A DNA stretch of 43,699 bases from Candidatus Absconditabacteria bacterium (GTDB taxonomy: Bacteria; Patescibacteriota; Gracilibacteria; Absconditabacterales; Absconditicoccaceae), in contig JAQUVI010000006.1 of NCBI GenBank assembly GCA_028693445.1, positions 1 through 43,699 of the forward strand. The letters are read 5' to 3'. How positions within the stretch are numbered: position 1 is the first letter of the stretch; each line of letters starts with the position of its first letter. The position numbers and the translations under genes are program-made. This document shows positions 4,036-40,336 of this stretch, piece by piece. The notes beneath the pieces were generated by a model. It ran no database searches and was not told where the DNA came from. It saw only the letters and a list, made by a program, of their open reading frames with translations.

Positions 4036-4041
4036 ATAATA

Positions 4042-4902: not shown

Positions 4903-4926
4903 AGTTAAATTATTTAAAAATAAATA

Positions 4927-5454: not shown

Positions 5455-5456
5455 AT

Positions 5457-5750
5457 TTATAGAATAATATAAATAATTGCTAAAAGAATTCCAATACTTA
5501 TTCATATCAAGAAGTATTTTGTATATATTTTTGCTTCATTATCTTGGTGTTCGTTGTATCATATATTTATGCGAGCCAAAATATATCCCAACATTATTCC
5601 ACAAAAAATTAGATATCATGGCATTAAAACCTCTTTTATGATCACAAATGATTGTTGATTTACAATATCTTTTCCTCTTAAAAAAAACAATCATACAACC
5701 ATAGTAATAAAAAAGAATATTCACTTACATATTTCCATAAAAAAAGCCAT
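5457..5750 (-). CDS. Small membrane protein, unknown function
   Basis: 97 residues (MAFFMEICKGIFFFITMVVG...). Three hydrophobic segments at about 8-25, 40-60 and 78-97 leave almost no soluble part. Four in-frame TGA codons are read as Gly. Its stop codon is only 2 bases before the downstream lipoprotein's ATG, which implies translational coupling. Family not recognised. Confidence 0.6.
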
Positions 5751-5772
5751 TTTTGTTTTTTGATAATATAAA

Positions 5773-6354: not shown

Positions 6355-6416
6355 TTGTTTTTGTTAATATAAAAATTAGTCCCAATCAGAATATTGTTTT
6401 TGGAATAGAAATCAAC

Positions 6417-10717: not shown

Positions 10718-11305
10718 ATGTTATTGAAAAACAGAAAGTTTTTGGAGATAGTGTTTGACTTATTTGATATGTTATCGTTTTTGGTATTTGTATGATGAAT
10801 AGTTTTGTTTGTCAGATTTTTTATAGCAAATCCATATACAGTAGTTGGTGCTAGTATGGCTCCTACTTTTGAAGAAAATGATTTTATTATAGTAGATAAA
10901 ATTACTCCAAGACTTTGAGAACTTCAAAGAGGTGATGTGATTGTTTTTATTCCACCAGAAAAAACTGTTCCTTATATAAAGAGAGTTATTTGATTGCCAG
11001 GTGAAACTATAAAAATTCGTAATAATAAAGTTTCGATTTGTTCTATTAAAGATAATAATGAAGATTGTTTTCAACTTGAACAACCTTATTTACCAGAAAC
11101 CGTTTGGACTGATACTAGGTGTGGATTAAATGAATTTAAAGTATTAAATGGTTATTTTGTAATGTGAGATAATAGAAGTTTTTCAACAGATTCTCGTTGT
11201 TGTTTTTGATTGGATTGTTATAATGGTGCTAGTTATGAGGTACCTTTGGATCATGTTATTTGAAAGGTTTATCTTAGATTTTTACCGCATTTTAGCTTCT
11301 TTTAA
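10718..11305 (+). CDS. lepB: Signal peptidase I
   Basis: 195 residues. One N-terminal membrane anchor (about 18-35), then the catalytic box GASMAPT with Ser46, the Lys box PYIKRVIGLPGE with Lys88, and the conserved MGDNR near residue 154. It removes signal peptides from exported proteins at the outer face of the membrane, so it would process the many secreted products in this window. TGA encodes 7 of 13 Gly, including that of MGDNR. Four cysteines in a central insertion (VSICSIKDNNEDC, TRCGLN) are unusual. Confidence 0.95.
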
Positions 11306-15026: not shown

Positions 15027-15119
15027 TTTAATTAAGTAAAAAATTCTTTTTTTAGCTTGTTTTCCTTGCTTGTTTTTCTATACTTAGCTGTCGTAAATTT
15101 TATTACTTATTTTTTTTGA

Positions 15120-18100
15120 ATGTTGCAATGGATTTTGAACTGGATGTCTGGAAACTACAACCAAAAACAGATAGATAAGATGATGCCTTTGGTTCGTCAA
15201 GCTAATACTTGGTATGAAGAGTATAATTTTTTGAAAGATGAAGATTTTCCAAAAAAAACACAAGAATTTAAAGATAGAATAGCTAAATGAGAAACTTTGG
15301 ATGATATTTTACCAGAGGCTTTTGGGCTTGTAAAGCAGGCTTGTAAAAAACTTATTGGAAAAGAAATTGAGGTAAGATGACAAAAACAAATTTGGGATAT
15401 GATTCCCTATGATGTTCAACTTTTGTGATGAATTATTTTGCACAAAGGAATTATTACTGAAATGAAAACTTGAGAAGGAAAAACCCTGGTTGCAGTAGCT
15501 CCTGTTTATCTCAATGCTTTGGAATGAAAATGAGTACATGTGGTGACTGTAAATGATTATCTAGCATCTCGTGATTCGGATTGGATGTGATCAGTATATC
15601 GTTTTTTGGGACTTAGTGTTTGATGCGTGACGAAGAAGGTTTCTATACAAAAGAGACGTGAAATGTATGAGAGTGATATTACCTATGTTGAAAATTCAGA
15701 ATTATGATTTGATTTTTTGAGAGATAATTTGGTGAAATCAATCAAAGAGAGAGGTCTTACCTGGAGACCACTTCATTATGCGATTGTCGATGAAATTGAT
15801 AGTATTTTGATTGATGAAGCAAGAACTCCGTTGATTATTTCAGAAGCTAGTGCTGAAGCTACAGATAAATATGCTTATTATTCTCAGATTGTGCGTTTGT
15901 TAAATCCTTGTTCGAGTAAAAAGAAAGTTTCTAAATGACTTTTAAATGAATTGATTCGTGCAGAAGAACTTCAACAAGAAGAAGATGGTGATTATTATAT
16001 TGATGAAAAAACAAAAACAGTTTCTTTGAGTGGAAGATGAATCAAAAAATTGGAGGATGTTTTGAAAGTAGATAATTTGTATAAAGATATTTGATACGAA
16101 GAAATTCATCATATAGAAAATGCTTTGAGGGCTCAAGCAGTATATCAAAGGGATAGAGAATATATAGTTGTAAACTGAGAAGTTTTGATTGTTGATGAGC
16201 ATACTGGTCGTACTATGCCAGGTAGAAGATTTTCTGAATGACTTCATCAAGCAATTGAAGCAAAGGAAGGGGTTTCCATACAAAAGGAATCGAAAACTAT
16301 GGCAACTATTACTTATCAGAATTTTTTCAAACAATATAAGAAACTTGCTGGTATGACTGGTACAGCTACTACGGAATGAGAAGAATTTGAAAAAATTTAT
16401 GAGCTTTCTGTTTTGGAGGTTCCAACAAACAGACCTACAATTAGAGTAGATAAACATGATAAAGTTTATTTTAATCAGGCTGCAAAATGGAAATTTGTAA
16501 AAGATTATATCAAATTTGCTTATGAAATTGGTCAGCCTATTTTGATTGGTACTTCGTCAATTGATACATCTGAACATGTTTCCAAGGTTTTGGAAAAAGA
16601 AGGGATTACTCATTATGTACTTAATGCAAAATTTCATGAACAAGAAGCTCATATTGTTTCGCAAGCTGGTAAATTTAAAAGCGTCGTTGTGGCTACAAAT
16701 ATGGCATGACGTGGAACGGATATTAAATTGGAAAAATGATTAAACGATAAATTGGCAGATAATTATGCACAATGGATAAAAAAACAAGTTTTTGCTAAAA
16801 GTCCATTTTCTATTTCAGCTGTGGTTTATTCTCAAATAGAATATGAATTGACTATGGATTGAATAATGCGTGTTTGGAATTTGAATGAAGAACAAATTCG
16901 TAATATAGAATCTGGTTGATTGGATCTTGATGATGTTGTTTTGAAAGTAATATTCAATTCTCGCAAAAAAAACAATGAAGACGCTTATGCAAAGATAGTT
17001 GTAGAACATAAAAATGGTGGTGAATTAATTCAAAAGGATTTTCATTATGGATTGTTTATTTTGGGTACAGAAAAACATGAATCAAGACGTATAGATAATC
17101 AGCTTCGTGGACGTGCTTGAAGACAATGAGATCCTGGTATTTCTGTGTTTTTTGTGGCACTTGATGATTTGATTATGAGAAAAATGTGATGAGAAAGAAT
17201 TCAATCTATGGCAGCAATGCTTTTGCCAAAGGGTGAATTGGAAAACCTTGAACTTACTCAAAAACAGTTTAATAGTTCTATTGTGAGAGCTCAAAAACAA
17301 ATGGAGGCTTGGCATTATAGTTCTAGAAAACATGTATTTGAGTATGATAGCGTGATCAATAAACAAAGACAAGCTATTTATAAAAAAAGAGATGATATTT
17401 TGTTTTCTGAGCAAGATGAAACTCGTAGAAAGACATTGTTAGAATCTATGTTGGCTGAGATTCCTCAAAACATCCGTGATGTCGTGACTTATCAAATTGT
17501 CACTTCTCAATCTTTGGGACAATCTGAGTCTGCTTTTTTGGAGACAGCTAGTAAAGAGTTTTGATTGGAAAAAGATGTTGTTGCTAGGTTTGCTGGAAAA
17601 GATTTTGCTCAGCTTACATCTTTGATATCTGAATATCTTGTAGATAAGATAACAACTGCATTATCTTCTGCTGATGAAATGATGGCTTATATGCTACTGA
17701 AAGATGTGTATTTGTATCATCTTGATGCTCTCTGGGTGAAACATATAGATGAAATGGAATATTTGAGAGATAAGGTATGACTTATGTGATACGCTCAGAT
17801 TGATCCTTTGGTTATGTACAAAAAAGAAGCTTTTGAAAAATTTCAAACATTGCTTTTGAGACTAAAACAAGATGTTACTATGTATTTAATGAATTTTGAT
17901 TTTGGTGGAAAACCTTCTGCGCAGCCAGTTATTGAAATTCAATCAGATCCAAATTACCTTGATATTTTACAACAAGCTGGTAATTCAGTAAAAAATATTA
18001 AGCCTCAGCAATTGAGATCTAAGCCGAAGAAAAGTGATGATGGTGTTGAAATTTTTGAGGTTTCATCAGAACCAGAGTCTCCTTATAAAAATATTTTTGA

Positions 18101-18185
18101 ATGATGATCCAAAAAAGCAAAACCAAATGATCCTTGTCCTTGCTGAAGTGGAAAAAAATATAAAAAATGTTGTTGAGCTGTATAA
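15120..18185 (+). CDS. secA: Preprotein translocase ATPase SecA
   Basis: 1,021 residues. The motor pushes preproteins through SecYEG. Motifs in order: Walker A EMKTGEGKTLVA (about 113-124), [16 protein letters not shown] (about 223), [14 protein letters not shown] (about 411), [16 protein letters not shown] (about 521), RGRAGRQGDPG (about 661), and a C-terminal zinc motif [19 protein letters not shown] encodes invariant glycines in several of these, the best proof of UGA = Gly in the window. Start chosen at ATG 15120 ([15 protein letters not shown]). The frame stays open upstream to 15036 with a hydrophobic stretch. Slightly long for the family because of insertions in the helicase domains. 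Confidence 0.97.
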
Positions 18186-20224: not shown

Positions 20225-23200
20225 ATGTATTTTTTGCATAAAAGGCCTTTAATTTGACTTTTGTTGCTTATATATTCATTATCCTACTTTTTGCAGAGTT
20301 GGTTTTTTGTTGACTTTTGAGGTGTTTTTGCTGAAAATCCTTTGAATAGAACCAATTTGATAGCTGTTTTTGTAGATAAAGATGTTTATCAAAATTCCAA
20401 AAATAGCATAGAACGATATGCAACTGATTATATTCAACAACGTGTTTCTAACTCAAAAGCATTGATATTGCCTATAAATACTCAAAATTTCAAAGCGATT
20501 GATTTGGTAAGAATGCTTGAAAATATGTATTTTGATTGAATAAAATGAGAAACATCAACATTGCTTTGAACAGTTTTGATCTGAGATATTCCGTTGCCTG
20601 TTGTACAAAATAATTGATTTGTATATCCTACAATTTTTCCGTATGTGGATTTTGAAGAACAACAATTTATCTACGATAATAATCAGAAATTCTTTGTATA
20701 TAACAATAATCCTAGAGGCCAGGCTGAAATTTGGCATTGAATAATTAATTTTTGATCAGATTCAAAAAAATATGGTGACTATTTTCAAAAACTAAAAACA
20801 TATGTAAGTTCTCCAAAAGATTTTGTTGCACCTCTTATGTGGTATGATGATTTTGTAGGTATGAAAACTACTTTTGATGATGATACACTTCCATTTTATG
20901 TTAATAATTTTTTGTTTACAGAAGACGTTGGTTATCATAGATTTACCAATTTGATGCTTGATTATTTTAAACAGGTTCAAAATGATGGCGTAGGTGATTT
21001 GGTTTCTTCGTTATCGGCTGCATCTCAAAACAATCCACAATTAGCTCAAATTGCATCACAATCTCAATCATCTTTGGATGCTTTATGATCACCAAAAGTT
21101 CCTACTACAATGTTGTTATCTGTTATAAAAGAACTTTTGAAATGATATGAAAATTTGTATCCTGGTGTTTTTCTTTCTGCTATGAAAGATAATGCACAAG
21201 CTGCGGCTAGATGGTACAAAAAAACATGAAGTGGGGTATGGTTGGATGGTATGGATTCACATCTTCATAAAATAGTTCTCAAAGATACTCTTACATTATG
21301 AGATCCTGGTAAGTGATTATCTCCTTTGATAGTGTCTTTCAATGACGCTATGGAAAAAGCGTTGGATGAAAGAATAGAAGAAGATCGTCTTTATATGACA
21401 TTGCCTGTAATTGTACAATATAATCATCAAGATTTTAAAACAGAGAAAAAAAGAATTTTATGAATTCCTAAACGTTGGTGTGAAAAAATAACAGATGATA
21501 TTTATAATAATTACTACTTTGGTACTTATGCGGCTGATATAACTTCTGCTGAACAGTTTAGTGCTTATAAATGAACTTTTAGAAATTTGAATACATTTTC
21601 TGGTGTTGTTGTTTTGGATACTTGATACAATTCTTCAAATGCTAAATCTCTTTGATCTAGTAACAATCTTTTCTCTACTCAAGTAGATGCAAATAGATGA
21701 TATAATTTGATGTCAGCAGCAGGTGATTATGATACTTACAGTGAAAATAAAATTAAAGAAAAAAAAGAAATTTCTTGTAGTAAATGGTTTCTTCCTTGGT
21801 TTCATATTTTTTGTATGACAAAAAAATCTAAAGAGATTTGAGATACTTATGAATCAATAGAAGACTTTGCTATTAGAGGATGGGGATGAGCATCTAGTTT
21901 GAATTTGAATTCTTGATTGTTGTCGTCAGATATCCCAGAATATGTGTTGAATCAATATAATTATAAATCAGCTTTGTTTCCTGTTTATGATATTTGATGA
22001 TCATTATCGGTTAAAACTTGAAATCTTTCTGCTTATTCATCTTCTGGAAGTAAGGATTATGCTTCTCTTGTTAAAGTTAATGATCGTTATTGAAAAGTAG
22101 ATTATCCAAAATATATTAAAGGATCTGTTGATAATTATCCTGATGGTGTTTATGTATCAAGTGGTGGTTATAAAATGCTAAGTGGTACATCTAGAATATG
22201 GGAAGATTACAATAATTTTGATTTTTTTGATATTTGGAATAAAACATCAGATAAATGAAGCAAAATGTGGAAAATTATCGATATGAATTCTTTGAAAAAA
22301 GAATGGAAATCGTCTGATTCTATGTGATGAAAATGTGACGGTAAAAGAGAAATTTATAGTTATACATATAAGACTATTGATTCTAGAATAAAAAACACAT
22401 CACCAACTCCAGATCAAATAAATGGTACATATCAAAATGAATTTTCTGAAGAAGGATTGTTTTGGAAACATTATGATTATCTAAAAGAAAATATAGAATT
22501 ATTGAAAGATCAATCAAAATTATCTTTTGATGATGCTTTTTCTGGTTTGCAATTTTTGTTGTCTTGACACAAAGAAATTAATTCTGGCATAAATTCTTTT
22601 GTTGAATTAAATTCTACTGATCCTGTTGCTTTATTGTCTTGAGTACAAGATATTTTTTCTCAAACAGGAAAACAACAATATATTGAAATATTTTCTGGGG
22701 TATTTAATTCAATGGAAGCTAGTTCAGACACTTTACCGGCATTAAATTTTTGATTGGTACTTGCTTATTTTGATGTTATAAGAGAAACTGAAACACTGTA
22801 TAATCAAAAAACAAAATTTCTTTCTGGATGGAGTAATGAATTATTGTCATGAATATCTGTTATACAGATGCAATATAATTCTTTGCCTAGTACTTTTGCT
22901 CAAATTACGTGACTTTACTCGCAAATAGAAAATCAAAAATTTGCTACATGATCTTTGATTACCAAAAAATCTGAAATCAATAAATTACAAAATTGTTGAA
23001 CAGCATTGTTGCCAGATTATTGTTGATGTACAAATAATTATAAACAGGTTTGTGATAAAATAGATGAATTAGTGCTTTCTTTAGATGATTTATCTCAAAC
23101 GCTTCCAATATTAAAATATACAACTGTTGAAGAAGAGATTGATTGAGAAGTTGTTACAATAGAGATTAAAATTATAGAATCTATTCAATTATCTTTACAA

Positions 23201-26200
23201 GAAGCTTCTGCTGAATGATGATTTTTACAAGATATTCCATTTGTTGTATTTGGTATTAATTCAATAGAAAAAGTTGATGAAGTTCCTCCATTAACGTATG
23301 TTAAATGACTCAATCAAACAACGCAAGATAGACCTATAGATTGACCAAGAAACATTACTTTTCAATGACTTGGTGGTGATGTAGTGACTTTTGTATATCC
23401 AAATCTTTATGATGTTTCTGTATATAAACAAGAATGATCAAATCTTGTTTTGAAGACAATTGCAGAAATACAACAATGAATCACTGCTTATCTAATTAGT
23501 AAAGCGAAAGAATACAACCAGCTTCTTACCAAACAAGAACAAAAACGTCAACAATATTATAATAGTGATTTTGCTGCGTTTGATTTTCTTGCAGAAACAG
23601 ATTCTTTAGCAACACCCAAAAATCGCACTACAGAGTTATTGTCAGAAGATTTTTTTGTAAATTTGATCGGTAATCAACGTATTTTTGAATTAGCAGAATT
23701 AATGTATTATCAGACGCTTCCAGTATATTCCAAAAAAAACGAGTCTTATGTAGACAAAGATTTGGATGCTATTAGGACAGCTTTTGATGTAAATAAAAAA
23801 ATATCTTATATTCTTTCTGGATATCTTACTCATCATGAGAATCAATGAGAACTAATTACACCAACATATAATGCTTCATGATATGAAGTTGCTTATATAA
23901 ATTCTGATAGAGCTGATTATATTTCAGCGGCAGAGATGCCCCCATTTATAAAACAAATTCAGGAACAACAAAAACCAATTTCTAACGTAATTATAGAGGA
24001 TCCTGTTTTATCACAAAATGAATTGTATACAGCTACTAAAGCTCAGTGTTGAATAGATTCTAGTTATTCAGAATTACTTTTTGATCTAAAAGAAGAACAG
24101 GGTAAATGAAAAATGCCTTGGGTTACTGCTTTTGAATGTTGGCTGACAACAATTCCTTCGTCTATAAAATTTGATATATCTATGGAGGTTTGACCCTCTT
24201 TTGGTGATTTTTTGTCTGGATTACAAGCTTCTCTTGATGATTGGAAAACTTCTATGAAACAAGTTTTTGATCCTGAAGAAGAAGAACCTTGAGCTGAATT
24301 TTCTGGTAATATTGATGAGTATTGGACCAATGTTATTATGATAACTTGAGATAGTGTTGTTTGACCAAAAATAAAAACTATTTCTTTAGAAACACCTACA
24401 ACAAAATTACTTGCTTGATCTCAGTTTCCTATTCAAATAACAGCAGAAGATTTTTCTGGAAAAGTTGTAAAAAGAACTATGGATACTTATTTTGTTTATG
24501 TTTCTACTGGTAATTGAGAATTTATATGAGGTGGTTCAAGTTGACCGAAAAGTATGGAGTTTTCAGATTTTGATAGGACTCTTGTTTATCAAGCACCTAA
24601 TGTACAAAGACCAACAAATATTACTGTTTTCTTGGCTTGAGCAGATGTTTGAACTCAAAAAAATATTTTGGTAACACCAGGAAATTTCAAAGTTAGTTAT
24701 GAAAATCGTGCTTTATATGAAAATAATACTTTAAAAAATTGATTGTCGTTTACTCTTACTTGAATTGATTCTACTTTTTCTAGCGTTCCAAGAATTGTGA
24801 TTTCTTTGCGTGCTCAAGATGGTTCTTTGTTGCAAACTCCATTTTCAGTTGTTAGTAAAAATGGTCTTGTTAGTCCATGAATAATTTCTTCTTGAGTTTT
24901 TGTTTGATTGCATACTTATTTTTTGAAAAACACTGAACAAGTTGTATTCTTGATGCCAAATTATCGTGCATGAAATGATGAGTTATATATTCAAATTCCT
25001 GGTCTTGATCGTATTGTAATTCCTATTACAGTAAATCCATGAAAAGCATATAATGTTTCTATAAATATGGAATCAAATATTTATAATATTTGAGATTCTT
25101 TTAGTGGGTCATTTTTTGTATCTGATAATTGGTGAAATCCTATTTCTGGTACTGCAGCATTGAAGATTTGATCATTATGAGCACTGGATTTTTCTACAAA
25201 AACAATTTCAGTAAAAAATGAACCATATTCTTTTTCATCATCAACAAAAGATCCATGATGAATTAGTTATATTTATGCTTTTATTGATTGAATTCCACTT
25301 AGTGATCAGTCTCCTGCTTATAAAAAAATTATTGTTCAAGAGACGTTTCTTCCACAAAAGAATTTGAATGTTATGTACTTAAATCTTTTTGGCTCTGATT
25401 GGTGAGATATTTGGACTTTTGATGCTATAAATCCTAATTATATTCCAAATCTTATTAACTCTTCTCAAAAGCTTCTTTCAATTACTACACAAATAACTGA
25501 TACTTCTAGTATAAAAAAATTTGCTAGTGTTGTTTCTGATAATGGTCAGATTTATAATTTTTCTAATCGTGAAACAATTTTAAAAATTGATTCAGGTTTT
25601 TTGATTGGTGAAATCAAAGATGTTGCTAATATTTCGTTGTTTAAAACAAAAGATATTTCTCTATTTTCTTCAGATAAGCCAATTGATTCTATAAAATCTT
25701 TTTCTTCCAAAAATTCAGCTGCTTTGTTTTTTGAAAAAAATGAAGATACCAAAGACATAGAAATAACAGACAAAACTATTTCTTTGGATGGCCAGTTGCT
25801 TTTTGATATCAAAAATAATCTTTGGAATACTTGATTGAAAATTGTATTGTCTGATAGTATGAAGCAATGATATAATGTGTGGAATATTCTTTATGAAGAA
25901 GAGCAAATCTGAAATTTGTATTTTGTAAAAAATAATTCTACATTGTTGTCGGATATTGTACTTTATAATGTAGTCACATACGATAAAACTATTACTTTTG
26001 CAGAATGATCTACTAATTGACAAAAATGAATCTGAATAGTTGATGTTTTGTGAGTTTTTGAAAAAGAATGATACGCTTCTATTGAGGATAGTAATGACTA
26101 TGAGTTGGGTATTTGATTTAGATCTGATTTCAAAAACATTACTTTGTTTGGTGATGGTAAATCTGTTTGAGAATCTACGATTCCTTTTGGTTCTCAATTT

Positions 26201-29200
26201 TTGATAAATTTTGGAGACCCTCTTTTGACTAGAATATCTAATAACAATGAAATAAAATCTGTTTCTATGGATTTGGGAATAGGTGAACAAATATATACCA
26301 ATCCTTCAAAATCTATATTTAAAGTTATTGATACTGATTTTAATAATGATTGACTCAAAGATATTTTGGTAGTCTTTACTGATTGAACAATAAAATTTCT
26401 AAAAAATTATGGAGGCACTCATCCTTATACGAATATGCAAGATCTTATTCGTTTGGCTGATAGTATAAAAGATGTTTTTGTATGAGATGTAGATGGAAAT
26501 AATTATCCAGATATTTTAGTTTGGACAAATAGTGATCAATTGAGAGTATATAAAAATGATAAATGAATTGTAGATGTGGATTGAAATATGATATGTTTGA
26601 ATATAAATGTTGATAATACAAAAGTACAAGAAAATCCAGAATCTGTTGTTTGATTACAACAATTATTTTTTGAAGATATGGATAAAGATGGAAGTATTGA
26701 TATTGTTACAAATGATCTTGTCTGAGATATAAAAGTATTTTATGGGTGATCAAAAAATTCGAAAGCAAATTATGTTTCTACATTGCCTTATGCTTGTGAT
26801 GATGATTGGTATGACAGACAAAAAGATAATGTTAAATTGGTGAAAAGTTTTGGTGTGGTTGTAGATCCAGATTTCTATATTCAGGATGATAGTATGATCC
26901 ATGTTGAGGGGTGGCTTATAGAAAACCAATCTGATTCAATAAACGACTCTGATAGTCAATGATGAGATTTGCCAGACGAACTTGATATCCCTATGGGAGA
27001 AGATTTTGATATAGGAACTTTTGTTTCTTCTATGTCAAATTATTCTCAACAATTGGCTTATGATAGTCTTAGTGATGTGTTTTCTGTGGCGCCTGTATCT
27101 TATATGCCAAGTTATGAATCATGAATTAGTCTGGAAAAAATCTGATATAGAACATTGATACAACTTTCGTGAAACGACTCTATAAGTGTTTATAAAAAAT
27201 ATAAAGATTTGAATTGATGAGCTTTGCTTAGTTGAGATATAGTAAAGATAAATACCACTATTGTTTGATTACAAAACAATACGAAAGCAACTTATTTTGA
27301 TCGTATTCTTTGACCTTGGGAAGTTGAAACTGATGATGAAAACAAAATAATTTCTTTTGCTAAAGAATCATGAGAATTTGATATGGAAGATATTAGTTGG
27401 TTTGATAGTGATGATTCGTTTTTTGTCTTGGATAATATAATATTGGACAATCGTCAATCTATGAGTTTTTCTTATCAAGTTGTGTATAGATGAGAGCCAA
27501 CTGTTGCTATATCTGTTGAAGATGTTGATTTTTTGGAGAAGGATAATGAAAAGGATGAATATCTAGATATTGTTGTTACACCTCTTGATAGTTGTCAAAA
27601 ATATAGATGGTTGTTTTTTAATACTTCTTCTCAAAGTCATAGATCGTATCAGGAAGAATTTGATGATATACAGGCAAAAATTGATTCGTTTTCAGAAGAT
27701 TGATTAAAAGAATGACAAGAATTATTTGATAAATCGGTTCCTGAAATGAGTAAGGATGATGCAGATGATGAATGTGATGAAGGTTGTGCAAAAGAAATAC
27801 AAGATAATACCCAATCTCTTATTGATGATGCCATGAATTCAGTTCCTGCTATAGCAGATGTCTTTGAATCCTGGACTGTTTCTGATTTATTTTCGTCTTC
27901 AACAGAGACGAATTTTGAGATTAATATGGATGCTATTAATTCTATGTTGGCTCCTGTATCTGAATGATTGGATAAACTTTTGGATGATCTTTGTGCATGA
28001 TTTAAACTTTGAAGTGATTGATGTCAACCACCATTTCCATTTAATAAAATCCCATTTAATCAGGCATTTTTGGCGCCAGGTAAATATCATATTTTTGGCT
28101 GTACACCTACTATACCACACCCTTTGGCGCCGATTTTTACGATAATAAATGATAGATTTTGAGCCTGATTTCCATTATTATTTTTCCCTGGTACCTTACA
28201 AACTCCAGTAGGTCCTGTTCCTATGATTGGTTCAAGCTTTGTGCCTATTGTGCAACAAATGCCATGAAGTGATTGATTTTGACTTTCACCCGGATTTCCT
28301 CCTACTTGATGAACATATCCCTCACAAATTAGATTATATTTGGTTCCTACTTTGACGCTTCAACTTGGAGTTGCTATCTGTTTTGGTCCTTATAAGTTAT
28401 GAACAGCTCTTCCTCCTTTGGTAAGAGATTTGTGATGACAATGTGTTGTGGTAGCTTTTCCTTTATATACTTGTAATAAAACACCAAAACCTTGATCTGA
28501 AGACGAACCTTCCACAGAAAAATTGGATTCTTGGATGGTTGATTCTGCAAAAAATTGATCTTGTGATGAACCAATGCAATATTGATCAGCAAAAGTTATT
28601 TCAAATACAACTATTATTCAACAACAAACACAAAAATCACCATTTAGACTTTCATCTGTTTGAGCTCAAAATTCTTCTTGGACTTCAGCTGTTCCAAATG
28701 CAAATATTGGATATGTTTCCTTTTCTTCAAAACCAACAAAAAAATCTTCTTTAAACACAAATCCTGCATTTGTTCGTTGATTTAATTTGGATCCATTTAG
28801 TTTTTTACAATGACCTACTGTTGATTTGAAGATAAAAGATAGTAATGCAAAATGAATTATAAAAGCATTGGTAAAAGATTGGTTTGGTAGACAGGTTAAA
28901 TATATGATAAATAATTTAACAACACTTACTATTAATGTTACTTTACCAGATATTTCTCAATTAGCTGATTGATTTGGTGGCTTATTTTCTGCAACAGCTT
29001 GGAATTCTGCTTCAGAGGAATCAGATAATTGACAATTTGATTATATAAAAGATGCAGAATGATTTTGAAGTAAATTAAAGGCTATTACATCAAGGCAAAC
29101 TTATGCTGCAGCTAGTTCTGCTACCAATAATCCGTTTGAATCTTTGATTACTATATTTCAATCTATACCTTTGGTTGATTTGTATACAAAAGATGTAGTT

Positions 29201-32200
29201 ATAAAAATTCCATTGCCAACATCTGATGATATTGTAAAATATGAAAATTATGGTAGAACTTGGTTGGATAATCAAAAAAAAATATTGAAAAAATGGTTGG
29301 AAGCCGTACATGAATTGGCTTATGTTTGTGGAAAAGTAACAAAAGAAGATGCAGAAACCTGAATTAAATATTTAGAGTGAGAATTATCTAGAATAGAGGA
29401 AATTAAGAGTGATGCTAATTATCCAAAACTTAAAGAATCTTTGAATAAAGAAAAAGATTTTCTGGAAGATGTTTTGGAGGATCCGTCGCTAACTGATAGC
29501 GATATGATTAATATAGAAGATGTAAAAGCTGTCTTGAATGATATAGGCAGACAATTTGAATTTTTTGGAAAGAGAGTTGTAGCATTACCAAGATTGAATT
29601 TTGTTAAAACTTGTTTGGAAAGTTCTGATTCAACTGGTAATTGTAAACCTTGGGCAACTCTAAATGATAAAGAAAAAATTAATCAATTATCTATTGTAAA
29701 TAAAAAAGTTGATGAGCTTTCTAGTTGTGCATCTTTTGCCGGTGATTTAGACAGTTTTGTTAATTTTTATAATGATGCTTTGTGACTTGTAAGAAATGTA
29801 CAGCAAAATATTCAGGTATTGGAACAATACAAACAATTCCCGTTACAACTTTATGATTGGATGCATTTTGTAGATAAATATATGTCGGATATTATTGGGT
29901 TTGTTTCTACATTATCATCTACTTTGATGTGATGGATGAATGTAAATGCAAGAATTTATGCTAAGTGGATAGATTCTTTGATTCTTATTTTGACTACTAT
30001 AAAAACATATCAAGTTTTGATAGATTTGACTGTTAATTGGACAAAAAATTGTGGTAAATGTTCTCGTGATTGATATGGGGCTCATGGTTGTAGTCTGAGC
30101 TTCTTGTTTCCACAAATCCCTATTATACCTATACCGCCTTTTAAAATACCAAATATAAATATAGATTTTTCTCATGTAGATTTGTGAATTAGTATAGCTT
30201 TACCAAGATTTGTTTTTGTCCCAGTTGATTTTCCGTTACCACAGTTACCTAGTTTGCCATCGCCACCAGATTTTAATTTGGCTTTGTGATTGGATTTTAA
30301 AATAGATTTAAAATATGATTTACCACAAATCCCTTTGTTACCGTCACCACCTAATTTACCAGAACTACCTTCTTTTATACCAAAGATAGATTTTTCTTTA
30401 CCAACAATACTTCCACCTGCTCCCAAAATACCATCAATTATTCCTGAAGTATCTACTATTATTGAAATAGCAGAATTGGTTTCAAAAATATTTTGTATTT
30501 TGAAAAAGGGGATTGGTTTGGTTTGAGAAAAATGAATAAAAGCAAAAGTTGAACAACTTACTCAGAGAACTTGGGATGTGCCTATTTTTGATTTTTTCAA
30601 TCAGACTTTTAGTTGGAATGCCGATCCAAAACCACAATGATTTGATTATCAAATTGACTGATTTCTGCAGTTTAAGATGGATTTTTCTGGATTTTATGGA
30701 TTTTTGAATCAGATTTCTGAATATGCAAATTCTTTGACTTATAGCGTAACTAGTGCTTATTCAAAATGATTGGATTTTGTTAATTCTGGAAGTAATTCTA
30801 TTACAAATTTCTTGGATGAGAGTATCCAAGATGTAGATTTGGATTTTACTATTCCTCCATTAGATATTTCTGTAGATGCTTTGTCTAGTGTTCCGACTAT
30901 GGATTATGAAGTTGCTTATAAAGAATTAAATGATCAATTATTTACTTTCAAAAATAGTGTTGAAGAACAAAAAATAATAAATGATGTAGAAAGTATGATA
31001 TCTGTTTTAAATACAAAAGCTGTTGTAAATCCAGCTACTGAAAATATACAGAAAATACATGATGAAATTCAGACTATATTGGATGAAAAACAAAAAGAAG
31101 TTCGTCAATTAGCTACATCAATTTCTTCTTATGACAATTTTATTGCTAAGGTAAAGCGTAATGATATAGCTTTGGTAAATGATGATAATATTGAAATTAG
31201 TTTTTCATCTCCTTTGTTTACTACGACAAAAGAAACGTACGAAATTATTGAAAACCAAGAATCTCCGCTTAAAGCATATATGGATACAAACTCTAGTTTG
31301 GTAGGTTGATATTTACAATCTTTGGAAGATTCTTCGTATGATGAATTGAAAATTTCGAAAGATGATTATGAAAACACCAAAACTTATTTAGAGTCAATGA
31401 AGTTAACAATAGATAATGTTTATGATAAATTGTGATTTGATAAAGTAGCTTATTCTTATTGTGGGGTGCCTTCTATAGTTGAAGATACTACTAAATTTGA
31501 TTCATCGACTTCTTCTATTCCTTTATTGGCTCAATCTTGTCCTACTTGTGGAGATTGAGATTCTGGTTGAAGTCCATCATGATTTTGATGAGATATATCT
31601 TCGTATGTTCGTGGTGTATTTGTTGAAGATTCACAATCTTGAAATATGGTAAATGTTGTTAGATCAGATTCTTTTATCTCCAATATACGTGATCGTTATT
31701 TTGTTTCTGATATAAATAACAATAATTTACAAGATCTTGTGATGCGAGACAATAACTCTATCTATGTAAAATATGCGAAACAAGAAACTCAACATAAAAA
31801 CACCAAAAATAATTCATCTCTTTTTGCTTATTCTCCTGGTATATTTTCATCTTATTATATAAACTCTTATGATGATCTTTTGGAAAAAACAGCTAAAGAT
31901 GATGGATATGTAGATTTTTGAAATATATCTGTAAAACTGACTTCATCTGTTCAAGAAGTGAAAAATTTTAGAGTTGCTTGACAATCTTTTGATGCGATTC
32001 AAATGTCTTGGATAAATCATGATTCTTTTGGAGAAACGGTAGATGGTTATTTAATAAAACTTAATCATAGAATAGATACTTATAATGATAAAGATACAAA
32101 TTTCCGCTTTTTGGATGATAAGTTTTTGAATAAAAGATATATTTTGATGCTTCCTAATGATTCAAATTATAGTTGATCTACAATAGATTTTAAAGAAAAA

Positions 32201-33484
32201 TATTATTATAAAGGTAAAGATGCTGATAGGGCTAGAAGTGTTGTAGATTTCTTATCTTGATGAATGTATTCAGAATTAATTTTGGCTGTTAAATTTTATC
32301 AACCAGCCCAAAAAACTATTTCTTTGTGACTCAATGAAATACCTAGAAATTGGCAATATGCAGAAATAATTCCTCTCAAAAATACAAATAATGAAGAAAA
32401 TCCTTATTATATTCCAAGTTGACCATGGTCAAATCAAATAGTGGCTGGAAGACAAATTTTGTCTGATAGTATTTGACCAGAAGCTCTTATACATTTTAAT
32501 AGACCATCAATATCTGAGACAGTAAGTGTTTGATCTCGTCATAATTGATTTGTTTGAACAAATTATGATATTGTTATTGATTGGAAAGATAATGTGGCTG
32601 TATCGGATATGTGGATAGAAAAGGATTGAAAAATTATTTCTTCTTCCAAAGCCAATTCTCCAGAAGCGACAATACAGCTTACATGATTGTATTTTACGTG
32701 AGAAACAAAATTGGAATATATTGCAGGAGCTCAGGATTTTAACTGAAACAAACAATTAGAAAAAATTACTATAGAAATCAAAACACCAACAATCGAAATC
32801 AAAGATTTTATACCTATATCAGAGTTTTCGTGACAACTTGTTGCTGAACTTTCAAACGATATTGATCAAGGTATGGTAGTTTTCCAAAGACAAAGAAATG
32901 ATGTTTGGCAAGAAATGTCATGAACATTGGCAAATACTTATTGATGATTCTTTGTTGGTCCAAATCAAACAACTGTTACATGATCTGTATTTAGTATGTG
33001 AAATACCCTTGGTTTGTATGATAATAATTGAAATGAAATAGGGCAAATTACTATTGATGGACAAGTTACTATTCTTCCAATATATCAAGATCAATATCAA
33101 ATAATGTTGGATCTGGTGACTTGATATCCATTGGTTCGTGTTTTGGATAAAAAAAGCGGTACTACTGTGTTCTGGATACAAATGCCATCTACTTCTTTGA
33201 GCGATGTTACTTTGTATCAACAGGAGCCTTTCTATACCAAGGTTGATCTTACTGAATCAAGCTTTGGTGCGTTTTTTGGTGGAACTTGTATCCAATCTTT
33301 GGATAAAGATTGTGTGTTATATATTTCTTCAATAGGTCAAATATATATTCCAAATTCTTCATCAACATCATTGGTAGGTGAATATCGTTATGATACTACA
33401 ACACGTTCTGTTATTTATGTGATAAAGGATTTTTTGGAAAAAGATATTGTGAGAATTACTACAAAAACTCGTCTTATGAAATAG
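20225..33484 (+). CDS. Giant secreted surface protein with FG-GAP/VCBS-type repeats (about 4,419 aa)
   Basis: One open frame of 13,260 bases under code 25; the standard code would cut it at a very large number of TGA codons. ATG 20225 gives a signal/anchor segment (KRPLIGLLLLIYSLSYF... to FAENP, residues 1-40). Residues about 40-200 have alternating strands and a LLGTVLIGDIPLPVV motif that recalls caspase-like (C25) folds, unproven. Calcium-type repeats D-x-D/N-x-D/N-G are seen at about 2031 (DTDFNNDGLKDILVVF), 2088 (VGDVDGNNYPDILVW), 2148 (FEDMDKDGSIDIV) and 3828 (VSDINNNNLQDLVM). Pro-rich stretches lie at about 2610-2720 and 3295-3410, and Ig/FN3-like segments after about 3890. No C-terminal anchor. 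Likely an adhesive or contact protein on the cell surface. Confidence 0.9.
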
Positions 33485-33509: not shown

Positions 33510-34343
33510 ATGTATAATAATTATTTCAAAAAAAATATAATCTGATTGTTTCTGTTTGTTGTGTTATTTTTTTCTACATTTGTTTTTGCTTGAGATGATT
33601 GTAAATCTATAGATGTTTCTCTTGATCCAAACTTGATATTTACACAGGAAGATATAGATTTGGCAAGATCTCATCTGTTGGCTTATTGTTGTAGAGAAAA
33701 TGAAAAATTATTTAAAGCTGAAGATTTTTTAAGTACCTGACAATGTAAAACAGCCACAGCTTGACCAGATAGTCCTTATTGGTATGATCATTTGATTGAT
33801 ATTGGGATGAGAAAACTTTCTGGAAGAAAAGATGAAATTTATCCTGAAATGGATTTGGATAAAGATGCTAAAGAGTGGCAAGACTTTTTATCAAATTCTG
33901 AAAAAGCTAAAAATCCTGTAAATGTTAGTGAAGAGTATAAAAAACATTGGAAATTAAATGATTTGCCAGTTGTTGATAATTTATCAGATTCTTTAAATAA
34001 ATTTTATGCAACTACTGGAATAACGCTTCATGATAAATATACCAATCTTTGTATGGTGGCTCTTGGTATGTATAAAAATATTAGTAATATAGATATTGTA
34101 AAAGATTGATATTATTCTAAATGTGTGTCATTGGCTTCTATGAAAATAAATGAAGAAACTTTGTTTACTGTTGCTATTTCTCAAAATAGTGCAGCCAATA
34201 TGCTTTCTGATAGTTGGACAAGTTATACAAACCATTTTTTACAAGATAGATTGATGAAATTACGTGATAAGATGGTTGCTATTTCTTCTTATTTTAATAT
34301 ACTTTTGAAAAAAGCTCCTTTGTCAAAAGATTGCCAAAAATAG
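33510..34343 (+). CDS. Secreted Cys-containing protein after the giant gene
   Basis: 277 residues. Signal peptide IIGLFLFVVLFFSTFVFA, then a mature helical protein with about nine cysteines (DDCKS, YCCRENEK, GQCKTATAG, LCMVALG, SKCVSLAS, KDCQK), which suggests disulfides outside the cell. It starts 25 bases after the giant gene's TAG and ends 22 bases before a pilin-like gene, so it belongs to the same operon. Several TGA codons encode Gly. Family not recognised; it may be a partner or chaperone of the giant protein (inference). Confidence 0.72.
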
Positions 34344-34365
34344 TTTTATTTTTTATGATTTTGTA

Positions 34366-34824
34366 ATGAAGTATATTCTTATGCTATTGATTTCGTTTGG
34401 AATGTATGGTTCTTTGTTTGCTCAAAATTTACAAATAATCCCTGAAGCAAAAGATGATGTTTCAAGTGGTGTAAAAAATATATGAAGTGAGTGAGGTAAG
34501 GTTTGGGATAAATATAATGAAAAAGCTGCTGAACTACAAAAAGATTGAGATCTTTGAGCTCAGATGGCATCTGGAGTTTTTACATGGGATACATTACTTG
34601 ATTATTTGGCATATCTTATTAAATTTTTGTCTGAGGTTGGTATTTTTGTCTGAGCTTGTTTTATTGTATATGCTTGATATTTGTATGCTACTAGTATATT
34701 CAATTCAGATTCTTGAGCTACTTCAAAATGAAACACATCAATTAAAAACGCTATTATATGAGTTATAGTGATTACATTTTCTTATGCTATAATGAAGGCA
34801 ATAACTGCAGCATTTCTAACTTAA
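34366..34824 (+). CDS. VirB2/TrbC-like pilin-type membrane protein (third copy)
   Basis: 152 residues. Signal peptide MLLISFGMYGSLFAQ, a helical mature N-terminus (SEGGKVWDKYNEKAAELQKD), and two membrane helices at about 80-104 and 128-150 around a small basic loop (GATSKGNTSIKNA). This is the same shape as the two pilin-like genes at 537-1585. Placed last in the giant-gene operon, it ties that operon to type IV secretion or pilus-like machinery. Its TAA is directly followed, with no spacer, by the stop codon of the opposing gene. Confidence 0.7.
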
Positions 34825-36852
34825 TTATAATTTTTGTTGTAAACTATAAACTATTGAATTTATGTTGTTTAGTTTTTCTTCCATATCTACTCGAAACTTG
34901 TAATTTTCGTTTAAGAAACCATCTATCTTATCCAAGATAATTGATTTTCATTTGTTTAAATTATTTGGTAATTCTTTGGGTGATTGAAAGACAAACTGTT
35001 GTTTATATTTTTCGACTTTTTCTGCGTATTCTTCTGGCGATGATGCATATTCTTTGTATACTTTGTTTTTGATAGGATCTGCAACAATTATATATTTGTT
35101 TAGATTTAGTTTTGATGCAGGAGAATAATCTTTATCGTCCTGTAATTTCTTTATTTCAGTTTGTTTTTTATCTTCTTTTGCTGATTTAGAGTTGTTGCTA
35201 AAAATTGGTTTAAGGTCTATGTTTAATTGAAAAGATAATATTTTTGAGAAACTGAAATCTGCGATAGGGTTGTCCAAAAATTCTTTTGTTTTTTGAAATT
35301 TTAGCATTGATCATCAGTTTATAAGATTGTGCATTATAGACTGTATTCTTGTAAGTATGTCATCAAAACTATAAATAGATTTTCATTTTGATACAGTCAT
35401 ATTTTGTACAGGAACCATACAAAATCTTAATTTCATCATTTCATTCATCTCTTTTAGTCTAGGGTCTGGATCATTTGGTCGAGTATACATTTTACAAGTA
35501 CATTGTATTTGGCATATTATTTTTTGGTCTAATGGCAGCGTTTTACAATCGTTAAAACAACTTTCTGCAGATTCGTTATCAAAAAAGGAATTTACATATT
35601 CTTCTATAATTTGATTATTTACTCATGTATTGTTGTCTCATGTTGTATTGTTGGAAATATCTGAAAATATGTTTGGAATAAGTTTATTTTCCGGATATAT
35701 GTTGTTGATAGAATCTACTTGTTCTTGAAATGTTTCTAAATACTCATCTAGAAGTTCTTGATCTATCTCTATTTCTTCGTCTTCGGTTATTGGTATTTGA
35801 GCGCTAATTCATTGTATACAAATATTTCATTGTATAGGTTGTAGCTGATTACTAGTTTTCTGTGTTAGGTCATTTTCTTTGATAAAACTATCCAAAGATT
35901 TGTCTTCTGTCTCAAATATATCTGTTTCAATAATATTTGCTGTTTGATTTGCTTGTGTTGTTTGTTGGTCTCATCATTGATCTGTTGGTTGTATAATTCA
36001 TCAATTTGTGATAACTCATGTGTTTGTAGATCATGATGGATTTAATAAATTTTGTAATAGAGTATATAATTCTTCTTTTTGTGCAGAGCTTCAATTATTT
36101 CATCAATTAGTTCATCCGTTTTGTGAAGTTCATCATCATGCATAATTTGGAGGTAGTTTATAAAAAACTGTTTCCACTGGGGCTATAAAAGATTCGAATA
36201 ATATATCTCCTATATTTTGTATGTCTATTTGTAAATCGTAATCACTATCATCAGCAACTCAATTCATAAAATAATCTTCTCATATGGCAGCTTCGTTTAG
36301 TGTTTGCAATGATTTTTTGTTTTCTGATATTGTTTGAAATTGGTTGTTTACTCGTATTTCAACAAATTTTTTGTTTGTGGAATTGTAGTTGTTGCTTGTT
36401 TTTAAAATTTTTTCAGAATATAATCTTTGTATTATTGTGTTATAACTTTTTTCAATTTCTTCCTTTGATATTTTACAATTTTTGCAGCTATTTTTTATTG
36501 TCACTCTGATTCTTCTATTTGTATCGTATAAAATATTTAAAAGATCTGATTTTTCTATATTTAGATCATTATTTATAAATCTGATGTCGTCCAAAGATGT
36601 TGTTATTTCTTTTGCTGATTTTGTTTGATTTGCCTCAAGAGCTTTTTTGTAAATATTTTCTTTCATAGCATCTCATTCAAACATGTCTTCTATAGGTTCA
36701 TTTTGTTCTATCGTGTTTAATAATCATTGTAAACTACTATTTATTGTTCCAATTCCAAAAACTTCTTCTTTTACAAAAAATATGCTTCGTATAAGTCAAA
36801 GTAAAGCTCATAATAAAATAATTAATTTTATTCTAGTCTGGTTTTTGGACAT
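34825..36852 (-). CDS. Large exported protein with Gly/Asn-rich linker and Cys cluster
   Basis: 675 residues. N-terminal membrane helix (RIKLIILLGALLGLIRSIFF). Then helical domains (TTSLDDIRFINNDLNIEKSD; CKNCKISKEEIEKSY) and a low-complexity region, GGGTSQNGGTNGGNNGSS, in which nearly all Gly are TGA. A Cys cluster, ESCFNDCKTLPLDQKIICQI and QCTCKM, precedes a C-terminal helical domain rich in Lys. It overlaps the next upstream gene by 20 bases, showing coupled translation. Probably extracytoplasmic; no family recognised. Confidence 0.72.
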
Positions 36853-37990
36853 TCCTAAGGATATCTTGTAAAGTATAAATAGGGGTTAGTGTTTTATTCA
36901 TATTTCAAACAAATTTGTATATATCTTCACTGTACATCAAAAATCAAATATGGATTGGAAATGTGTATTGAATTTCTTTTAATATTTTGATGCTTGTTTG
37001 AATTGCTTTTCTTGATGAGTCTATATTATCATACATTTCTGAAATTCTATTTTGGTTGTTTGTTATTTTATCACTGAAATTTTTTACATTTCGATTTTTA
37101 AATTCGGATTTGTTTTGGAGCAAATATGAATAATATTCTACAAATAATCCATAATACATAAGTTCGTTGTAAACTAAGTTTATAAAATTATCTATATTTC
37201 ATCAATACAATCATTCTGTTATTGTGTTGTATTTTCTGTCTTTCTCGTTTTTTTCATTTTCTTTTTTATAGGCTTTGTAAATATTTTCATCATTTAGTAT
37301 GTTTTCTGCGTTTGAAGTTATTAGATTTCTAGCTGCATAAAAATATTCTTTGAGTTTTTTACATGTTTTTGGATAGCCATAATGTTTGTCTGTAGCACAT
37401 ATATCTATAAAATTGTTTGATCAATAACTAAAATATTGTTTTGAAAAATGCTGTGTAAAATCAGATTCTTTTGGGTCATTCATATATCAATAAATATTGG
37501 CTTGATAGATACTTACATAACTTCCGATTATTTTATCAAATAATTCTTGTATAAAATCTTCGGTTTCTTTGTAAAAATCCGGTAATCATTTTGTCAGTTG
37601 GTTTGCTGGGTTTCAGTCAACATCTTCTTTGAATTTTATATATGATTTTTTTTCGTCATCACCAAATCATTCAATTTTGAAAAAATCTATTTTATCTTTG
37701 TATTTGCAAATGTTGTACAAAAATATTGATTCTTCTGGCCTGAAAGAAGTATCTGAATCTATTTTTTGATTTTTTATTGCTTCACAAAAAAATGTTATCA
37801 TGTTTCCAAAATTGTCTCTGTCTGTGTTTTTTATGGTATCAACTGCATCAACTCCTTTTATTAAATTGTTTATGTCTATACTATTTGCTTTTGTAGTTTG
37901 TAAAAATCAATATCATCAAAAAAATGTTGATACCAACAAGATACTAATAAATAATTTATAAAATTTTTTGATAATAAGTTTTTTTGTCAT
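36833..37990 (-). CDS. Exported helical protein, unknown function
   Basis: 385 residues. Signal-like start KKFYKLFISILLVSTFFGGY, then a mostly helical, Lys/Asn-rich protein with paired cysteines (FFCEAIKN, YNICKYKD, DICATDKHYGYPKTCKK). TGA codons are read as Gly throughout, and the frame ends at TAG. It starts 3 bases after the stop of the upstream gene and overlaps the following gene by 20 bases, so this is one operon with 34825-36852 and 37994-39388. No family recognised. Confidence 0.72.
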
Positions 37991-37993
37991 GGT

Positions 37994-39388
37994 TTAGTAA
38001 TAACATTTTTTATTTAAAATATTGCTACATTGTTTTTCACAAAGCAATCATAAATTTTTGATAAGACAGTTGTCGATTCAGTCTTTGCTTCAAATAATTT
38101 TATTGTTTATATTGTTTATCCTTTCTGATAATAAAACAAATTTTGATAATATATCGTGAGGAGTGTCTAATGTAGTATATTTGTCTTTCATTTGTTTTTT
38201 TTCTGCTTTTATTGTATCTATAGTTTCATTGAAACTATTTTGGAAATCAATTACTATTTCTTGTTTGTTTGTATCAATATTTAGTGGAAACTGATTTTTT
38301 GTTTCTGTTATATTGTTTACTGTTGATTCTGATGTTTCTTCTGTATTATCTTCATCTGTTCGTACTTGTACTTGTTGATATACAGCACTGTTTTCTATCT
38401 CATATTTAGCTCTATTTCTTCGATCTTTTACTTCGTTGATAGCACCAGAAAATTGGTTAAAGATTGCGTTTTCTGTGATTACTTTTTTGAGATTTTCTTT
38501 GGAATATGCTTCTAATAGTTCTGAGCTAGCTCTTTTGACTTCTGATCGTGCATTGTTTCGTCAATTTTTGTATATTTCTCATATTTTTTTGATTTCTTCT
38601 TGTATGTTTCATCGAGAATCTTCGCAAGCGTACATTTTGGTACAATCATAATTTTCTTTGATTTGTTGTATTGCTTCTTTTTTTATTTGGATAGAAGCTT
38701 TACCTTCGGTTCATTGGAAAGGTATCTCTTTTGTGTTTTTTGCTCGGTCTTCTCAGCCCAATGCTACTAAATGTTTTAGAGAACTATTAGTTTTTCATAG
38801 TAGCATAATCAGATCTCAATATTCTGCTCAGTTTGCTATTTCTGTTCAAGTTCATAAAACTCATAATCATTTGTATCTTTCTATTATATCTTGCATATTT
38901 TCCAATGTTACTCATCATATTTTGTCTGTTCGTCATCATCAAACAGAAAGTTCATATTTTTTTTTGTTGATATCTTGTTCTATTCTTCAGACTTTTTGTC
39001 GATCTCTTATGATGGTTTTATTTCTAGCCATTACAGACAAAGAGTCTCAAATATTTGCTAGATCACTAAATTCTAGATGAATTCTTCTCACTGCTAATGC
39101 ACTTCATAGTGTTTCTCTTGCTCGTCTTGTGGTTTTGGATAAAAGGCTTTGTTTTGGTGCAACAAATTTTCCTGAATCAAATCGGCTTGGTGGTACGTAT
39201 TTGCCAGCATAAGGAGCTTCGCTTCCTATGGTTTTTATTGTTCAAAGTATTTCTGTTGTAAAACTATTTATCAATGTGACATGTAAAGGAGAACTTCAAC
39301 AAGCAGGACAAGATTGTCAAAAAGATATGAATGGAATCATTCATCAGATTGTTATAATTATGCTGAGTATAATTTTCTTTTTGTTCAT
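37994..39388 (-). CDS. Exported protein with CPxC motif and coiled-coil regions
   Basis: 464 residues. Signal peptide MNKKKIILSIIITIGGMIPF..., then FGQSCPACGSSPLHVTLIN right after the cleavage region. A short Gly-rich part (YELSVGGGRTDKIGGV) is followed by a long helical middle (IQIKKEAIQQIKENYDCTKM; EIKKIGEIYKNGRNNARSEV) and a Cys-rich end (DNCLIKNLGLLCEKQCSNIL). More than 25 TGA codons are read as Gly. First of three exported-protein genes in a coupled minus-strand operon, 18 bases after the metallopeptidase gene. CPxC could be redox-active or metal-binding. Family not recognised. Confidence 0.72.
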
Positions 39389-39406: not shown

Positions 39407-40336
39407 TTATAGTTTTGTAGTATCCCAAGGTCTTCGATCATAGTTGTTTTTTAGTAAAGATATAGCTTTAATATTTTTTTCTGTATAATTTCATTGTAAT
39501 AGTGTAGCTATAAAGTTGTATTTTTGAGCTAATACTTTGTTTTTGCTGGCAGTAAATTTGAAGAAGCTTTGATGATTTATAAAGAGATTGAAACATTCTG
39601 CAAAATCTTCAAATGGGTTTGTCATTCCATATCAACTACAAAAATCTCTTTTGGTGGCGGTTTTTTTTCTGACTTTTTCGGATTCTCGAGATATTTTGTA
39701 ATATAATAATGATGGGTCGTTTATAGGAAAAACTATTTTATTGAATTCTGTAAAAAGCTGGCTTTTTGTGTTTTTATTTCCTTGGATTGTTCATAAATCA
39801 AATATGTGACCTAGTTCGTGAGTAGATAAATTATGAAATTCTTTGATGTCGTTTACTGGTCATATATTGAGTACAATAGTATCTCGTGTTGCATATCATC
39901 TTTTTTGGGATTCGTCGTTTTTGATTGTGATTTTTTTGATAGTATCGATAATTTTTTTGTTTATTATTTGATTGTCGTTTATAAAATATGTTGCTGCATG
40001 TACTTGATTTTTGTAAGGAATTATAATAGTTTTGTTTTGTGTTTCTATTTTTTGGCAAAGAGGGTCGCTTTGTTTACATTTATCTTGAATATCTGGGGCG
40101 CTTTCGTGTATTTCTTCCACAATATTTTCTAAATTATTTGTCTCTTTTTCTTCTTCCTTAATAGGCTCTTCAATATAAGTTTTGCTTAAATAATCTTTGA
40201 AAAAGATTGATTCCTGTGTTTCGCCCACTTTTTCTTCTTTTCGCAAAAACCCTAGCAAAAGGATACTTGTTGCTATCAAAAATTTGATAATATCGCTGAA
40301 CAAGACTTTATTTGTTGGCATACCATTGGATGTCAT
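39407..40336 (-). CDS. Membrane-anchored zinc metallopeptidase (HELGH type)
   Basis: 309 residues. One N-terminal membrane helix (about 14-31), an acidic linker (EEPIKEEEKETNNLENIVEE), then a peptidase-like domain. This has VNDIKEFHNLSTHELGHIFD, giving the zinc motif HELGH (His173, Glu174, His177), and a downstream NPFEDFAECFNLF (about 240-252) that could supply the third zinc ligand, as in gluzincins with an ED-x-x-E helix. It would act outside the membrane. TGA encodes Gly in GLY/GYG positions after residue 146. It overlaps the end of the DnaQ-DinG gene by 29 bases and precedes exported-protein genes, a plausible set of substrates. Confidence 0.75.

What the first reader, a model, noticed from the sequence alone, without database searches (positions are those of the whole stretch)
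20225..33484. Single 13.3-kb gene for a giant (about 4,419 aa) secreted surface protein, hidden by UGA recoding
With TGA = Gly the frame is open from ATG 20225 to TAG 33482; with the standard code it is shattered. It has an N-terminal signal/anchor, FG-GAP/VCBS-like Asp loops in two clusters about 1,700 residues apart, Pro-rich blocks and Ig/FN3-like C-terminal segments, but no C-terminal anchor. One gene takes about 30% of the window in a small-genome lineage. From memory, predatory Absconditabacteria have been reported with giant surface proteins; that link is recall, not checked here. It is the best candidate for the host- or prey-contact factor.
Basis: partly seen in the sequence, partly recalled or inferred. 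Interest (0 to 1): 0.88.

Follow-up and report, generated by a model that had tools for sequence, protein, structure and literature searches.

The report
Class-wide giant secreted protein of Gracilibacteria
The 13.3-kb gene is real and encodes one 4,419-residue secreted protein; nearly the whole class Gracilibacteria, a group of tiny, mostly host-dependent bacteria, carries exactly one such giant gene, usually beside genes for smaller secreted proteins, which points to a shared cell-surface machine rather than a prey factor special to this species.

Summary
In detail: with TGA=Gly, 20225-33484 is one open frame of 4,419 aa (175 TGA), far beyond chance. Relatives that use the standard code carry the same protein as one uninterrupted 3,900-7,900-aa ORF, so it is a single gene; at its TGA codons those relatives have Gly as often as at its GGN codons. 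It has a signal peptide with an A-x-A motif and no C-terminal anchor. Its N-terminal domain has a gingipain-like (C25) fold but no cysteine in 24 of 26 orthologues: a dead protease. It also has one FG-GAP segment, a Cys/Pro-rich module and a conserved helical/Pro-rich core (aa 2882-3460). It is single-copy in most of the class (core 109/145 genomes, N-domain 106/140) and absent from 343 and 261 sampled genomes of other classes. Genes for secreted proteins (A-D) lie beside it in several families; one family keeps only a ~1,000-aa core protein beside similar genes. Best reading: scaffold of a class-specific, multi-protein cell-surface complex. Host contact is plausible but untested.

The parts
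20225..33484 (+). giant gene, 4,419 aa, table 25, 175 TGA=Gly codons
   Evidence: single-ORF orthologues; Gly test
20225..20332 (+). signal peptide aa 1-36, SPase-I-like A-x-A site (VFA|ENP)
   Evidence: hydrophobic core and A-x-A-type motifs in most orthologues
20348..21010 (+). N-terminal domain aa 42-262, gingipain/C25-like fold without catalytic Cys
   Evidence: AF2 model of aa 42-1241 with VIA match to 1cvr Z 8.6, rmsd 2.6, 132 residues; PF01364; no Cys in 24 of 26 orthologues
23267..24010 (+). conserved block B2, aa 1015-1262
   Evidence: conservation profile, alignment A4
26042..26869 (+). FG-GAP segment aa 1940-2215
   Evidence: PF13517 E 8e-8; profile matches to FG-GAP/integrin structures
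27977..28519 (+). Cys/Pro-rich module M aa 2585-2765; Cys 2590, 2719 and 2740 in 26/26 and Cys 2600 in 25/26 orthologues
28868..30664 (+). core module aa 2882-3480: helical region (long helix predicted at aa 3148-3276) and Pro-rich segment with LPPAPKIP and EQLTQR motifs
   Evidence: alignment A2; hhalign 98.3% to the short form of family f5; low-confidence AF2 model
33510..34343 (+). gene A, 277 aa secreted protein 25 bp downstream of the giant
   Evidence: blastp conservation and signal peptides
34366..34824 (+). T4SS/VirB2-pilin-like gene, start inferred by comparison with L062
   Evidence: PF18895 E 4e-4 for the longer ORF 34150-34824; orthologues
34825..36852 (-). gene C, 675 aa, N-terminal signal or anchor
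   Evidence: hhalign to class-wide gene C 94%
36833..37990 (-). gene B, 385 aa, secreted
   Evidence: hhalign to class-wide gene B 86%
37994..39388 (-). gene D candidate, 464 aa, secreted, Cys-rich N-terminus
   Evidence: relatives beside the giant also in L065, L066, L067, L092; no profile match to class gene D
39407..40336 (-). 309 aa membrane-anchored HEXXH metallopeptidase-like protein
   Evidence: sequence HELGH; PF15887 E 0.002, below cut-off

Best explanation
The gene encodes the giant scaffold subunit of a secreted, cysteine-containing, multi-protein cell-surface complex that belongs to the class Gracilibacteria. The chain is exported by Sec, its signal peptide is removed, and it is held at the surface without an anchor of its own, presumably through the smaller secreted partners A-D. 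The helical/Pro-rich core (aa 2882-3460) and the Cys-rich M module form the indispensable assembly part. The catalytically dead gingipain-like domain and the FG-GAP segment are display or binding modules. Shown: one gene, collinear orthologues, signal-peptide motif, fold of the N-domain, loss of its catalytic Cys, class restriction in the sample, neighbouring secreted genes. Inferred: physical complex, surface retention, roles of the modules, and use of the complex for contact with other cells.
For: Single-copy and collinear in the class, absent in 261 (N-domain) and 343 (core) sampled genomes of other classes. Class-invariant Cys and Pro positions. Gene A directly downstream in many genomes (gaps of about -10 to 62 bp); order giant-A-B-C-D in several standard-code families; B and C recognisable in the window's family by profile. 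Family f5 keeps a ~1,000-aa secreted protein matching only aa 2882-3425 (hhalign 98.3%, E 2e-14) with similar secreted genes after it. Family f13 carries the N-domain as a separate ~630-aa secreted protein. N-domain fold 1cvr Z 8.6, no Cys.
Against: No biochemical or proteomic evidence of assembly or location. A-D homology between families rests on moderate profile scores plus position and size; D is not confirmed by sequence and the f5 C gene matched nothing. Two UGA-recoding families (L141, L142) have the giant without A-D adjacent. The AF2 model of the core has low confidence (pLDDT 58). Disulfides are inferred from conservation only.
Confidence: 0.58

Rival explanations
1. It is primarily a host- or prey-specific adhesin: the FG-GAP segment and other domains bind a partner cell directly.
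For: FG-GAP profile matches to integrin-like structures; authors of the Vampirococcus and Strigamonas papers assign their giant surface proteins to host recognition.
Against: Nearly universal in one copy across the class; across the class the N-domain and the Pro-rich core are conserved more than the FG-GAP segment. A fast-evolving binding face was not tested for.
Confidence: 0.24
2. It is the extracellular part of a type IV secretion-like apparatus.
For: VirB2/T4SS-pilin-like gene directly after gene A in the window and several relatives; a VirB6/TrbL-like protein farther along the same cluster in G007 (E 4e-4, below cut-off).
Against: T4SS-pilin-like genes occur 6-20 times per genome, so one neighbour means little; the VirB4 profile match in G002 is weak and about 650 kb away; in the other families examined the pilin was not seen next to gene A.
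Confidence: 0.12
3. It is an active gingipain-type secreted protease.
For: C25-like fold.
Against: No cysteine at all in aa 36-330 in 24 of 26 orthologues and no GHG motif; Pfam match ends at profile position 207.
Confidence: 0.02
4. The frame is an artefact of misassembly or of several genes read together through a wrong code.
For: Many TGA codons; genome contamination estimate 6%.
Against: Same single gene in independent genomes and in standard-code families; Gly test.
Confidence: 0.01

Closest known systems
Giant surface proteins of Absconditicoccaceae (Vampirococcus lugosii, up to 4,163 aa; Strigamonas, >1,500 aa)
   Same: same bacterial lineage, similar size, predicted surface location, adhesion-type domains
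   Different: described as a list of large proteins per genome; no class-wide single-copy family, neighbouring genes or C25-like domain is described in the passages read; identity with our protein could not be checked
Gingipain RgpB / peptidase family C25
   Same: fold of the N-terminal domain (1cvr Z 8.6; PF01364 over cut-off in one orthologue)
   Different: no catalytic Cys; in the model the conserved strands are followed by helices rather than the catalytic half
FG-GAP/VCBS proteins (integrin alpha, secreted esterase 8w20)
   Same: FG-GAP repeats in aa 2036-2160
   Different: only a short segment; full propeller not shown
Huge proteins of Peregrinibacteria (PMC11573180)
   Same: Peregrinibacteria noted as enriched in >5,000-aa proteins without COG assignment; several orthologues here exceed 5,000 aa
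   Different: no family was defined there in the passages read; that our standard-code families include Peregrinibacteria is recall

Membership tests
Peptidase C25 (gingipain) | C25 catalytic-domain fold | tested here: met
   1cvr Z 8.6, rmsd 2.6, 132 residues; PF01364 23.5 bits over the 23-bit cut-off in G014. Only the N-terminal part matches
Peptidase C25 (gingipain) | catalytic Cys-His pair | tested here: not met
   no Cys in aa 36-330 in 24/26 orthologues, no GHG motif
FG-GAP / integrin-alpha-like propeller | FG-GAP repeats | tested here: met
   PF13517 33.2 bits over cut-off 26.9
FG-GAP / integrin-alpha-like propeller | complete multi-bladed propeller | not tested
Anchored surface adhesins (membrane or S-layer anchored) | C-terminal membrane anchor or SLH domain | tested here: not met
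   no hydrophobic C-terminal stretch; no SLH hit in Pfam. A sorting-motif search was not run
Giant surface proteins of predatory Absconditicoccaceae | very large protein with export signal | tested here: met
Giant surface proteins of predatory Absconditicoccaceae | orthology with a named Vampirococcus or Absconditicoccus protein | not testable with these tools
Type IV secretion apparatus | co-located VirB4-type ATPase | tested here: inconclusive
   PF03135 finds few matches in these genomes; the one in G002 is weak and about 650 kb from the giant
Type IV secretion apparatus | VirB2-like pilin beside the gene | tested here: met
   but 6-20 copies per genome

The most novel reading that the evidence does not exclude
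The giant protein and its secreted partners form a class-specific extracellular apparatus that docks Gracilibacteria to other cells and moves material between them, with a dead protease domain reused as a structural or binding head: a host-contact machine unlike any described, fixed since the ancestor of the class.
Probability: 0.12. Interest if true: 0.9.

Novelty: new variant of a known kind. Interest (0 to 1): 0.6.

Why it matters
Giant surface proteins have been listed in single Absconditabacteria genomes and Peregrinibacteria have been noted for huge proteins without explanation. Here one orthologous family may tie these together: a single-copy giant gene, about 1% of each small genome, kept across most of a class and not found in the rest of the phylum sample. 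It names one gene and its neighbours as a testable candidate for what makes the Gracilibacteria surface distinctive, bearing on the open question of how these bacteria attach to and feed on others.

Tried and rejected
Active protease: rejected, no catalytic Cys. Separate genes or artefact: rejected. NCBIfam: no match. PDB sequence search with the N-domain and core profiles: no credible relatives (core hits are helical-bundle chance matches). Foldseek PDB and viral searches of model 1, and VIA on model 2: only generic helical bundles apart from 1cvr; other families are not excluded by absence from these lists. First related-locus scan with the class-wide alignment failed for lack of conserved stretches and was repeated with closer sequences. 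The T4SS idea was weakened by the high copy number of the pilin family. f13 564- and 1,693-aa ORFs do not match the giant. Literature searches found no paper defining this family, but only open-licence papers are held, and the Absconditicoccus genome paper was not read.

Full report
Observation. Under NCBI table 25 the window holds one ORF from 20225 to 33484 of 4,419 aa with 175 TGA codons; under table 11 the longest ORF anywhere in the window is 307 aa. Chance is excluded: 200 shuffles of the window never gave a TAA/TAG-free run above 194 codons, and the other five frames of the gene contain 103-292 TAA/TAG codons.

One gene, and TGA means Gly. The window is contig C6 of a 1.17-Mb genome. 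In the same family the orthologue is a single ORF of 3,615-4,910 aa wherever the contig is long enough. In other families of the class that use the standard code the orthologue is a single ORF with no recoding at all: 3,921-4,694 aa in the seven aligned, 7,874 aa in an eighth. At the window's TGA codons 33.2% of aligned residues in the seven standard-code orthologues are Gly, close to 36.5% at GGN codons and far from 4.8% elsewhere. Identity to the window protein runs from 66% in the same genus to about 20% in other families, and the alignment is collinear over the whole length. In a FastTree tree of the conserved blocks the members of the window's own family separate from the standard-code ones with support 1.0 on the long branch.

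Who carries it. Named relatives include CP006913.1 (SR1 bacterium RAAC1_SR1_1, same genus) and MAGs labelled SR1, Absconditabacterales, Gracilibacteria and Peribacteria. The core profile (A2) matches 109 of 145 genomes of the class, the N-domain profile (A1) 106 of 140, almost always once. Outside the class the counts are 0 of 343 and 0 of 261 sampled genomes (my count from the tables). Many of the absences inside the class lie in families f5 and f8. Note that the tally also shows five of 40 relatives without a match to the first 2,800 residues.

Anatomy. The protein starts with a hydrophobic segment ending in VFA|ENP; an A-x-A-type site follows the hydrophobic core in most orthologues, and no C-terminal anchor is seen. 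Conserved blocks are aa 40-250, 1020-1250, 1950-2200, 2700-2750 and 3200-3460. The AlphaFold model of aa 42-1241 (pLDDT 78) matches gingipain RgpB 1cvr with Z 8.6, rmsd 2.6 over 132 residues in model residues 1-286. Z 8.6 alone is middling, but Pfam agrees independently: Peptidase_C25 is the family that most N-domains match (4 of 26, best E 3e-4) and it exceeds its cut-off in one orthologue, over profile positions 53-161. There is no Cys in aa 36-330 in 24 of 26 orthologues, so the domain cannot be an active cysteine protease. FG-GAP is found at aa 2038-2099. Cys 2590, 2719 and 2740 are present in all 26 orthologues and Cys 2600 in 25 of 26; module M and the Pro-rich part of the core are 16% and 22% Pro against 4.4% overall. 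The model of aa 2560-3700 has low confidence (pLDDT 58) and suggests a ~129-residue helix at aa 3148-3276 followed by a long strand and the Pro-rich segment.

Neighbours. Gene A (277 aa, signal peptide) starts 25 bp after the giant and is conserved in that place in about ten relatives. In several standard-code families the order is giant-A-B-C-D, nearly all with N-terminal signal sequences. The window's family has matching genes: 675 aa with class gene C (hhalign 94%), 385 aa with B (86%); D (464 aa) is assigned by position and repeated linkage only, and gene A of the window's family found no profile match to class gene A either, only the same place and kind. In the window B, C and D lie just downstream on the minus strand; in G007 they follow the giant in one direction. 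hhalign probabilities here come from single-pair comparisons of small alignments, so they are supportive, not conclusive.

Reduced and split forms. Family f5 has, at the head of a similar set of secreted genes, a 1,000-1,200-aa protein matching only aa 2882-3425 of the giant (98.3%, E 2e-14). Family f13 carries the N-domain in a separate ~630-aa secreted protein (98%, E 2e-13). This suggests that the core plus partners is the essential unit and that the N-domain can act in trans.

Mechanism. I read this as the scaffold of a secreted multi-protein surface complex. Export motif, single gene, class restriction and linkage are shown; assembly, retention at the surface and role in contact with other cells are inferred. 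The reported fibrous surface and giant proteins of Vampirococcus (PMC8080830) and the large surface proteins of Strigamonas (PMC13059738) fit, but their sequences could not be compared. A T4SS link was considered: a VirB2-like pilin follows gene A in the window and some relatives and a weak VirB6-like protein lies in the G007 cluster, but such pilins occur 6-20 times per genome and no VirB4 lies nearby as far as tested.

Novelty. Giant surface proteins in these bacteria and huge proteins in Peregrinibacteria are known as categories. A class-wide single-copy orthologous family with a degenerate gingipain-like head and linked secreted genes is not described in the papers I could search. I rate it a new variant of a known kind.

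Noticed in passing
window 3-1585 (-): Row of small ORFs at the window's start, at least one with a T4SS_pilin match (G000:C6:1133-1324, E 2.8e-8); 14 such matches in this genome and 6-20 in each relative.
   Followed up: partly
window 39407-40336 (-): 309-aa protein with an N-terminal membrane segment and an HELGH (HEXXH) motif, weakly Peptidase_Mx; conserved beside gene D in the genus and a candidate processing enzyme.
   Followed up: partly
L133, L134, L135 (family f5): Short ~1,000-1,200-aa secreted form of the giant containing only the core module, followed by secreted genes of similar size and order.
   Followed up: yes
L136:141-2033 and L137:5900-7816: Family f13 carries the gingipain-like N-domain on a separate ~630-aa secreted protein.
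   Followed up: yes
L086/L087 (G025:C6): Orthologue of 7,874 aa, the longest seen; the extra length was not analysed.
   Followed up: no
L092 start (G020:C70): Contig begins inside the giant's frame with DIDGDG-type calcium-binding repeats not seen in the window protein.
   Followed up: no
L147 (G007) 458-7264 (-): Three consecutive large multi-TM proteins, one weakly TrbL/VirB6-like, beyond the partner genes.
   Followed up: partly
window 10718-11305 (+) and 15057-18185 (+): Signal peptidase S26 and SecA lie upstream of the giant; SecA linkage was seen only in the genus and G004.
   Followed up: partly
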